From Bacteroidia bacterium (GTDB lineage Bacteria > Bacteroidota > Bacteroidia > Flavobacteriales_D > Cryomorphaceae): a DNA stretch of 64,000 nucleotides. Shown in pieces: positions 34,897 through 36,084 of this stretch (position 1 is the stretch's first letter; the number at the start of each line of letters is the position of its first letter). The DNA is taken from positions 744,001 to 808,000 of the forward strand of contig JAUICL010000001.1 in the NCBI GenBank assembly GCA_030427905.1, given 5' to 3'. Both the position numbers and the translations under genes were made by a program. Under the pieces are notes generated by a model, which ran no database searches, had not been told where the DNA came from, and worked only from the letters and a program-made list of their open reading frames with translations.

Positions 34897-34913
34897 GTAC
34901 TAAGTATTAAGAA
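34897..34913 (+). repeat. Left 17 bp inverted repeat
   Basis: GTACTAAGTATTAAGAA here is the reverse complement, with one mismatch, of 35947-35963. The pair brackets 1067 bp. The sequence is AT-rich and self-similar, so the pair may be ends of a former element or interspersed repeats. Confidence 0.5.
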
Positions 34914-35017
34914 GGTGCCCTTCCCGCTATAATAAGGCTTACCGTTTTATTTTCAGAAGTAGGAACATCGATGCTAGTGAATAGTTAGAAACGAAAAACT
35001 CTTCTCAATTCGAGTTA

Positions 35018-35049
35018 CTGAACCTGAACAGTCAACGCTAATCAGGGAA
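35018..35049 (+). repeat. Direct repeat, copy 1 (32 bp)
   Basis: The last 19 bp, GTCAACGCTAATCAGGGAA, are identical to the second copy at 35843-35874; the first 13 bp differ at four positions. The copies are 825 bp apart in the same orientation. Confidence 0.8.
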
Positions 35050-35142
35050 GTTCGAGCCCTAAAGGGGTAATGACCCAGATATTGGCATCCCTAGGTTATT
35101 TCGAGACCATGTAGTCATATAATATTCAGGTCATGGGTCCTA

Positions 35143-35200
35143 TTGGCTCACAGCTTGCAGAATTGGAGTCTGACAGTTCGCAAAGGGAGTCGTGAGCCAA
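35143..35200. repeat. 9 bp inverted repeat with 40 nt loop
   Basis: TTGGCTCAC (35143-35151) and GTGAGCCAA (35192-35200) are perfect reverse complements. The loop has weak internal pairing (TTGC with GCAA). No T-run follows, so it is not a typical terminator; it could be a structured RNA or a protein site. Confidence 0.5.
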
Positions 35201-35620
35201 CTCTCGGCCTTAATTTTACTTTCTCAGAAACTCAGAAATAAACGGAAGTCCGCCGCACCCTTGCAGAGGTCAGGCATCGAAAGCTGTGCTTTCGCTAATG
35301 CCGTTTCCGAGTTTGGGTAAGGCGCTGAAGTGTTTTCAAGAGTTTCAAGAAATAAAATTACAGCCCTGATCTTTTGTTCCTTTTGCATCAAGGTAAAAGG
35401 AAGATGAAAAGTCAAACTTTTACCAATAAGTGAGATCGCTGCCTTCATCTCGGTCATCACCCCTGAAGGATGCGATCTAATGGGAAGCCCTGTAAAGGCG
35501 ACCAAGCGGATTGATAATGGACAAGTGCTAAGTGATAACGTTTGAGCAGCGGTCAACTGTATTTAGGTCAGTACCCCTATAATAGGTAAACCAACAGTTA
35601 AGTGCTACCAAAATAATCTC

Positions 35621-35708
35621 ACGGTCTCCTTACGGTCTTATGACGGTCTAGTGACGGTCTTCAGACGGTCATAATACGGTCTGAAGACGGTGATAATACG
35701 GTAAAATG
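35621..35708 (+). repeat. Eight-copy, 11 bp-period ACGGTCT array
   Basis: ACGGT begins at 35621, 35632, 35643, 35654, 35665, 35676, 35687 and 35698, exactly 11 bp apart. Seven positions (ACGGTCT, varying to ACGGTCA, ACGGTGA and ACGGTAA) are kept while the four spacer bases differ between most copies. The period is close to one DNA turn and is not a multiple of three, so the array is not coding. GTCTTCAGAC (35658-35667) and GTCTGAAGAC (35679-35688) within it form a 10 bp inverted repeat. It looks like a helically phased set of protein-binding sites. Confidence 0.85.
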
Positions 35709-35842
35709 GCGCTCTCACTCTATTATTAGAAAGAATCAGAGCCGTGAATGCATAGGAGACACCTTTCTCTTATCACTTTAAATCTCAATACGAATGTGGT
35801 ATGGCTCGGATCCAAAGCCTCTTAAATCGCTAAACTCAGGTC

Positions 35843-35874
35843 CTGAAGTGGAACGGTCAACGCTAATCAGGGAA
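35843..35874 (+). repeat. Direct repeat, copy 2 (32 bp)
   Basis: This is the second copy of the 35018-35049 repeat. It contains ACGGTCA, the same heptamer core as the 11 bp-period array 150 bp upstream. Confidence 0.8.
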
Positions 35875-35946
35875 ATAAAGTCTCTGCATCGCTACCGCGC
35901 GATTTCAAGGCGAGACAATACAATCGCCAAACATCTTTGTACTTAA

Positions 35947-35963
35947 TTCTTAATACTTGGTAC
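35947..35963 (-). repeat. Right 17 bp inverted repeat
   Basis: TTCTTAATACTTGGTAC is the inverted partner, with one mismatch, of 34897-34913. Confidence 0.5.
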
Positions 35964-36004
35964 AATCAATGGAAAAAATAGCATTTAACCCCAAATTGAG
36001 ATAA

Positions 36005-36084
36005 ACCCAATACCCTATTTATCCGCCATAGCTACAGCGAAGGCGGAATACCCTATACCCAATACCCAATACCCACTACCCACA
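36005..36084 (+). repeat. 7 bp-period TACCCAA tract containing a 26 bp hairpin
   Basis: Units of the form AATACCC or TATACCC repeat every 7 bp from 36047 to 36081 (five units) with one or two further units at 36005-36015. Between the two blocks lies a 26 bp hairpin at 36022-36047, with arms TCCGCC and GGCGGA, which reads like an insertion into the tract. I recall similar CCGCC/GGCGG hairpins as dispersed repeats in bacteria. Confidence 0.7.

What the first reader, a model, noticed from the sequence alone, without database searches (positions are those of the whole stretch)
35621..35708. Eight heptamers (ACGGTCT-type) phased at exactly 11 bp in a gene-free region
Seven conserved bases followed by four mostly variable bases repeat eight times with no length variation. 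The 11 bp period approximates one DNA turn, so all cores face the same side of the helix, and it cannot be coding because it is not a multiple of three. Core bases change mainly at positions 6-7 (CT, CA, GA, AA), suggesting decay at the 3' end, while spacers differ, unlike a recent slippage repeat. Two adjacent units also form a 10 bp inverted repeat (35658-35667 and 35679-35688). The pattern suggests cooperative binding of a protein to a fixed side of DNA; the binder is unknown.
Basis: partly seen in the sequence, partly recalled or inferred. Interest (0 to 1): 0.75.

Follow-up and report, generated by a model that had tools for sequence, protein, structure and literature searches.

The report
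Dispersed arrays of 11-base DNA repeats
The string of 11-base repeats is real and is one of nine related copies scattered between genes in this bacterium; some other Bacteroidota carry the same kind of array, often with a different core sequence, and it is not known what reads them.

Summary
In detail: eight ACGGT-N6 units at exactly 11 bp (35621-35708). They are not unique: the genome has nine such arrays (no further place with 3 mismatches; reversed control 0). The nine share unit order and flanks, so they are copies of a dispersed, non-coding repeat. Between truB and queA this genome has about 400 extra bases with an array, where 8 of 8 relatives with both genes found have a short gap. ACGGT is kept better than N6, and units come and go whole.

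Arrays of the same build occur patchily in other Bacteroidota (42 loci in one 2.3-Mb genome), but in 0 of 59 relatives here and 0 of 295 in a phylum sample. ACGGT is not universal: unselected Bacteroidales have 11-bp arrays with other cores (CGGACCA, nine loci in 100 kb), though periods 7, 8 and 9 are about as common there.

In two other genomes arrays show no orientation or promoter preference. RNA folding, arm pairing, RAYT linkage and a shared neighbour gene were tested and not supported. Best reading: a dispersed repeat carrying a phased series of protein-binding sites, binder unknown. A neutral minisatellite inside a dispersed repeat is a serious rival.

The parts
35621..35708 (+). array of eight 11-bp units, ACGGT + 6 variable bases
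35709..35719 (+). degenerate ninth unit (GCGCTCTCACT); several other copies have GCGGT-type units at this end
   Evidence: read
35573..35829 (+). part of the dispersed element shared with the copy at G000:C8:220745-220989 (73% identity), array included
35657..35688 (.). 10-bp inverted repeat (35657-35666 / 35679-35688) between units 4 and 6; not shared by the other copies
   Evidence: read
35074..35462 (.). separate dispersed repeat family in the same intergenic region, not part of the array element

Best explanation
The array is the central part of a dispersed, non-coding repeat element present in nine copies in this genome. Shown: the copies are related, at one place about 400 bases with an array are present that relatives lack, units are added or lost whole, and ACGGT is conserved above the spacers. 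Inferred: the 11-bp units are sites for a DNA-binding protein that reads about five bases per unit and lines up head-to-tail on one face of the duplex. The element spreads or is kept because of this binding, either through mobilisation of the element or through a chromosome-wide role. It does not work as the promoter operator of particular genes. In other Bacteroidota the same design exists with other cores, which would fit a binder whose specificity changes between lineages while its 11-bp stacking stays.
For: Nine arrays in the genome, reversed control 0; with 3 mismatches still the same nine places; none of the nine lies in an ORF of 100 aa or more. Shared unit order and flanks. Units aligned only on the variable bases show identity 0.86-0.98 at core columns against 0.53-0.83 at the six others, over 267 unit pairs. 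In loci of six genomes 390 of 413 successive ACGGT spacings of 30 bp or less are 11, 0 are 10, 1 is 12 and 7 are 22. truB-queA gap 496 nt here against 76-119 nt in 8 of 8 relatives where truB was found beside queA (one of them by its second aligned piece, 192 by its first). In 40 array loci of two other genomes, neighbours that share a direction run with the array in 10 and against it in 10; of 37 classifiable gaps 9 are divergent and 8 convergent. In nine foldback arrays of G356 the variable bases of the two arms match no better than shuffled (11 of 25; 11.7 expected), so the sites, not base pairing, seem to matter. Unselected relatives of G360 show period-11 arrays with other cores.
Against: No binder was identified, and no informative gene family is shared by array neighbours. 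Tandem duplication by itself keeps an 11-bp spacing until indels occur. Finding units by their ACGGT match inflates core conservation, only partly removed by aligning on the other bases and counting degenerate end units. The alignments show no sharp shared ends, and I ran no dedicated search for target-site duplications. Periods 7, 8 and 9 are about as common as 11 in the unselected Bacteroidales stretches (5, 5, 6 and 6 loci), so a general tandem-repeat process is at work there. Seven of the ten period-11 arrays of G531 overlap mechanical ORFs of 100 aa or more, so their intergenic position is open.
Confidence: 0.46

Rival explanations
1. Neutral minisatellite: a short repeat arose inside a dispersed repeat and changes by slippage and unequal recombination; the spacing is kept only because whole units are copied, and nothing binds it.
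For: Whole-unit gain and loss between copies; arrays with many different cores and with periods 7, 8, 9 and 11 in related Bacteroidales; patchy distribution.
Against: Core columns conserved above the other columns; almost no off-period spacing even where units differ strongly; in unselected stretches periods 10 and 13 have no locus while 11 has six with different cores, and in the three genomes followed further period 11 has 17 loci against 4 for period 10 and none for 13 (genomes chosen for having period-11 hits).
Confidence: 0.34
2. Operator array of a transcription factor of the OmpR/PhoB kind (tandem 11-bp half-sites), controlling the genes beside it.
For: 11-bp direct repeats with a 5-base core are the known layout of pho-box-type sites (recalled); the nine own arrays lie outside ORFs of 100 aa or more.
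Against: Arrays also sit in convergent gaps (5 of 20 in G360, 3 of 20 in G358; one of nine here), show no orientation preference in those two genomes, and share no informative neighbour gene family; sigma70-type promoter matches in this region are at shuffled level (2 against 2.8), though that scan does not cover Bacteroidota promoters.
Confidence: 0.1
3. RNA element: the array is transcribed and acts as a small RNA or as a long hairpin.
For: Fold z-scores of -3.1 (plus strand), -4.2 (minus strand) and -2.3 (longer plus-strand stretch) for the window array; G358 copies carry a loose sigma54-like match upstream (13 of 20, control 1 of 20; strict form 7 of 20, control 0); G356, G369 and UBA5614 arrays are inverted pairs.
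Against: Over 13 arrays on both strands (26 tests) unit-order permutations fold at least as well in more than 5% of cases in 24, and core-scrambled versions do so in 18 to 60 of 60; arms of G356 do not covary (11 of 25 against 11.7 expected); the promoter match is absent in this genome (0 of 7 loci; L062 with two arrays not included) and at control level in G360 (2 and 2 of 20); no Rfam family except tRNAs.
Confidence: 0.06
4. REP-like sequences moved by a RAYT (Y1 transposase).
For: A Y1_Tnp gene lies between two arrays in this genome (L062).
Against: Of 23 Y1 loci fetched from array-bearing genomes only that one has an array within about 1.5 kb; of 11 array genomes searched, G357 has no Y1_Tnp match.
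Confidence: 0.04

Closest known systems
Heptamer direct repeats (TAACTGA in Beggiatoaceae, cyanobacteria, some Bacteroidetes; PMC4679880, abstract and passages seen) and cyanobacterial STRR repeats (recalled)
   Same: Many sets of short direct repeats, largely between genes, patchy across lineages including Bacteroidetes, no known mover
   Different: Period 7 against period 11 with variable positions; one sequence across lineages there, lineage-specific cores here; in the best-studied genome TAACTGA sets mostly sit just before start codons
BrickBuilt, a MITE with a minisatellite, in Porphyromonas gingivalis (PMC4596501, abstract and passages seen)
   Same: Dispersed intergenic non-coding element (19 copies in one strain) in Bacteroidota, with a tandem array between flanking segments
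   Different: 23-nt units (AGAYCATARTATCCTCTCRTRTG) and terminal repeats like those of IS5-family elements; neither seen here
Pho box and similar OmpR/PhoB-family sites (recalled)
   Same: 11-bp direct repeats with a 5-base core followed by 6 bases
   Different: Those lie at promoters in short runs; these lie in gaps of every orientation, with up to 17 units counted leniently in one array
parC of plasmid R1, bound by ParR (recalled)
   Same: Clusters of 11-bp direct repeats bound cooperatively
   Different: Single plasmid locus beside parM/parR; here many chromosomal copies without a shared neighbour gene family
STAR elements of staphylococci (PMC3532100) and REPINs (PMC3116915), both seen in a search listing only
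   Same: Interspersed or dispersed short repeats
   Different: Not compared in sequence; a RAYT link was tested and not supported here

Membership tests
BrickBuilt-type MITE | dispersed intergenic copies with shared flanks around a tandem array | tested here: met
BrickBuilt-type MITE | 23-nt unit of the published consensus | tested here: not met
   units are 11 bp, ACGGT-type; consensus seen
BrickBuilt-type MITE | terminal inverted repeats of an insertion sequence | tested here: inconclusive
   no shared sharp ends in the alignments; a 17-nt inverted repeat encloses the window gap, but among the other own array loci only L066 has a copy, a single one
TAACTGA / heptamer direct repeats | 7-bp period | tested here: not met
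   390 of 413 spacings are 11
OmpR/PhoB-type operator | 11-bp direct half-sites with a short core | tested here: met
   (layout of the family recalled)
OmpR/PhoB-type operator | position upstream of promoters of regulated genes | tested here: not met
   8 of 37 classifiable gaps in two other genomes are convergent; one of nine here
OmpR/PhoB-type operator | binding by a response regulator | not testable with these tools
   needs binding assays
REP/REPIN with RAYT | adjacent RAYT | tested here: not met
   1 of 23 Y1 loci has an array nearby; one of 11 array genomes lacks Y1
Structured RNA | fold depends on unit order or core, or arms covary | tested here: not met
   (2 of 26 order tests below 5%)
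ParR/parC centromere | adjacent parM/parR genes | tested here: inconclusive
   no informative shared neighbour family; par genes were not searched for by profile

The most novel reading that the evidence does not exclude
Several lineages of Bacteroidota (and a Cloacimonadota genome) carry an unrecognised class of selfish or structural DNA: tens of arrays with an invariant 11-bp pitch whose core is specific to each lineage, read by a fast-evolving DNA-binding protein that stacks head-to-tail, so that element and protein change specificity together.
Probability: 0.22. Interest if true: 0.82.

Novelty: new variant of a known kind. Interest (0 to 1): 0.57.

Why it matters
If the arrays are protein platforms, they give a simple, testable system for how a DNA-binding specificity and its many sites evolve together, in genomes where the sites can be counted. 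If they are neutral, they still define a recurrent class of dispersed repeats, not covered by Rfam in the loci searched, with a pitch that is held for reasons not understood.

Tried and rejected
Rejected after the unbiased scans showed other cores. The x4 pattern against its reversal gave 7 of 149 against 0 (family of G354), 5 of 60 against 0 (relatives of G360; two of the five, G369 and G353, were already known), 1 of 58 against 1 (relatives of G359) and 0 of 295 against 0; the x3 pattern gave 0 of 59 against 0. The and sets share some genomes.

2. Spread by phages: 50 viral contigs carry the pattern, but the reversed pattern gives at least 120, spacing N7 at least 120 and N5 22, so the viral hits are not above background.

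3. RAYT/REP, shared neighbour gene (88 loci), RNA structure, sigma54-driven small RNA, Rfam: not supported.

4. Divergent-promoter preference: in the loci with one-way arrays divergent gaps outnumbered convergent ones, but the 40 loci do not confirm it (9 divergent, 8 convergent, 20 co-directional, 3 with a neighbour missing).

5. Literature: searches listed no paper that I recognised as describing 11-bp-phased dispersed arrays in Bacteroidota; the library holds only open-licence papers, and this is no proof of absence.

Locus counts were recounted to 42 (G360) and 26 (G358). I had wrongly taken some matches for heptamer copies; the query ended before the heptamers.

Full report
OBSERVATION. 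The window holds eight units of ACGGT plus six bases at exactly 11 bp from 35621 to 35708 (also found by TRF). The region lies between a DUF420 gene (ends 34877) and a small ORF without Pfam match (36118) followed by a homocysteine S-methyltransferase gene (36412). The only ORF of 60 aa or more inside the gap has no Pfam match, and Rfam has no match. The quoted inverted repeat is exact over 10 bp at 35657-35666/35679-35688 and joins units 4 and 6.

THE OWN GENOME. The genome (G000, 3.81 Mb, 13 contigs) has nine arrays: C1:185894, C5:151904, C5:154577, C5:409502, C5:570106, C5:779621 (this one), C5:985248 (minus), C8:220793 and C8:306675; 43 three-unit hits against 0 for the reversed pattern. 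Allowing three mismatches over four units adds no new place. None of the nine lies more than half inside an ORF of 100 aa or more. The copies share unit types in a similar order (CTCCTT, CTAGTG, CTTCAG, CATAAT, CTGAAT in one subtype) with whole units gained or lost, and they share flanks within at least two subtypes. Of 77 units that I delimited, 62 have exact ACGGT, with 30 different six-base remainders. Aligned on the remainders only, core columns are 86-98% identical and the other columns 53-83% (267 unit pairs). The 3' end of the arrays decays (GCGGT, ACAGT and similar).

INSERTION. One array lies between truB and queA. Of ten relatives searched with queA, eight have truB beside it on the fetched stretch, with 76-119 nt from the last aligned truB residue to the queA start (for G002 this is by its second aligned piece; 192 nt by its first); here it is 496 nt. 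In two relatives truB was not found on the stretch. About 400 bases were therefore gained here, or lost in all eight.

OTHER GENOMES. Many hits outside Bacteroidota are simple near-identical repeats, but several Bacteroidota and one Cloacimonadota genome carry several loci with varied units. In 20 genomes chosen from these hits, three-unit counts range from 2 to 210, with 2 reversed-control hits in all. With four exact units G360 has 42 loci, G358 26, and Chitinophaga E66 (G359) at least ten; each has its own remainders, and unit order is largely kept between copies. Two genomes (G356, G369) carry foldback forms, with arrays facing each other. Of 70 array loci taken from these five genomes, 62 lie outside ORFs of 100 aa or more: 18 of 20 (G360), 18 of 20 (G358), 10 of 10 (G359), 10 of 10 (G369) and 6 of 10 (G356). 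The ORFs are mechanical and were not checked.

PREVALENCE. The trait is patchy: 0 of 59 relatives of this genome, 0 of 295 in an even phylum sample, 7 of 149 in the family of G354, 5 of 60 relatives of G360 (two of them known beforehand), 1 of 58 relatives of G359; the reversed control gave 0, 0, 0, 0 and 1.

THE CORE IS NOT UNIVERSAL. I scanned fetched stretches for any 5-mer kept in at least four units. In 266 kb from 20 relatives of G360 without ACGGT arrays, period 11 has 6 loci in 5 genomes, period 10 none, 12 one, 13 none, and periods 7, 8 and 9 have 5, 5 and 6; one shuffle of each stretch (blocks of two bases) has none. Following three of these genomes further, G531 has 10 period-11 loci in 100 kb, nine of one family (CGGACCA plus 4), G522 has 3 in 160 kb and G524 has 4 in 200 kb; period 10 has 0, 3 and 1. 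These three were followed because they had hits, and 7 of the 10 G531 arrays overlap mechanical ORFs of 101-710 aa, so their coding status is open. A phylum sample of 40 genomes (637 kb) and five genomes of the own family (214 kb) have no period-11 locus. So period 11 recurs with lineage-specific cores in part of the Bacteroidales, and ACGGT is one of them.

MECHANISM TESTS. Spacing: 390 of 413 successive ACGGT spacings of 30 bp or less are 11, none 10, one 12. Orientation: among 40 loci of G360 and G358, 10 lie with and 10 against co-directional neighbours; 9 gaps are divergent, 8 convergent and 3 unclassified. Base pairing: opposing variable bases in nine G356 foldbacks match in 11 of 25 cases, 11.7 expected; a tenth lacked a second arm. 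Folding: the window array has z of -3.1 and -4.2 on its two strands and -2.3 for a longer stretch, but over 13 arrays and both strands only 2 of 26 tests are below 5% against unit-order permutations (C8_220 plus 2 of 300, C5_409 minus 13 of 300; next C1_185 plus 16 and G358_L612 minus 18), and core-scrambled versions fold at least as well in 18 to 60 of 60. Promoters: sigma54-like matches are frequent upstream only in G358 of the six groups tested. Neighbours: no informative shared gene family in 88 loci; the largest cluster is an ABC ATPase-like family in 6 loci (that name is my reading of its sequence). RAYT: 1 of 23.

CONCLUSION. Shown: a dispersed element, outside genes in this genome, with a strictly 11-bp-phased array whose core is conserved above the rest of the unit. 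Inferred: the array is a multivalent protein-binding platform. The nearest published cases that I saw are heptamer direct repeats (PMC4679880) and BrickBuilt (PMC4596501); neither has this unit or pitch. The neutral minisatellite remains a serious rival.

Noticed in passing
window 35074-35462: A second dispersed repeat family in the same intergenic gap, with more than 20 related stretches (72-97% identity) in this genome; no Rfam match.
   Followed up: partly
window 36047-36082: Heptamer array (AATACCC, period 7), so this gap holds a period-7 and a period-11 array; similar 14-mers (up to 2 mismatches) occur in own loci L063 and L064. Its spread over the genome was not searched.
   Followed up: partly
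window 35013-35049 and 35838-35874: Repeat pair around GTCAACGCTAATCAGGGAA; similar motif near the arrays at C1:185894 and C5:985248.
   Followed up: partly
window 34897-34913 and 35947-35963: 17-nt inverted repeat, 94% complementary, about 1 kb apart, enclosing the array gap; the same pair lies about 250 bases apart near C1:192400-192716 (L030), a place not among the nine arrays, and the right-hand stretch (35930-35990) matches about nine other places: perhaps ends of another small element.
   Followed up: partly
L062 4550-5122: Y1 (REP-type) transposase gene between two arrays, beside a SUKH-family gene.
   Followed up: yes
L063 4140-4874: 244-aa ORF without Pfam match directly downstream of an array; its start is repeated beside the array at C5:154577.
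   Followed up: partly
L607-L626 (G358): Array elements there carry a loose sigma54-like match upstream (13 of 20) and, by eye, a hairpin with a T-run downstream in several; my terminator scan counted none (0 of 20).
   Followed up: partly
L638, L667-L673 (G522): Nineteen period-7 array loci in 160 kb with several different heptamers.
   Followed up: no
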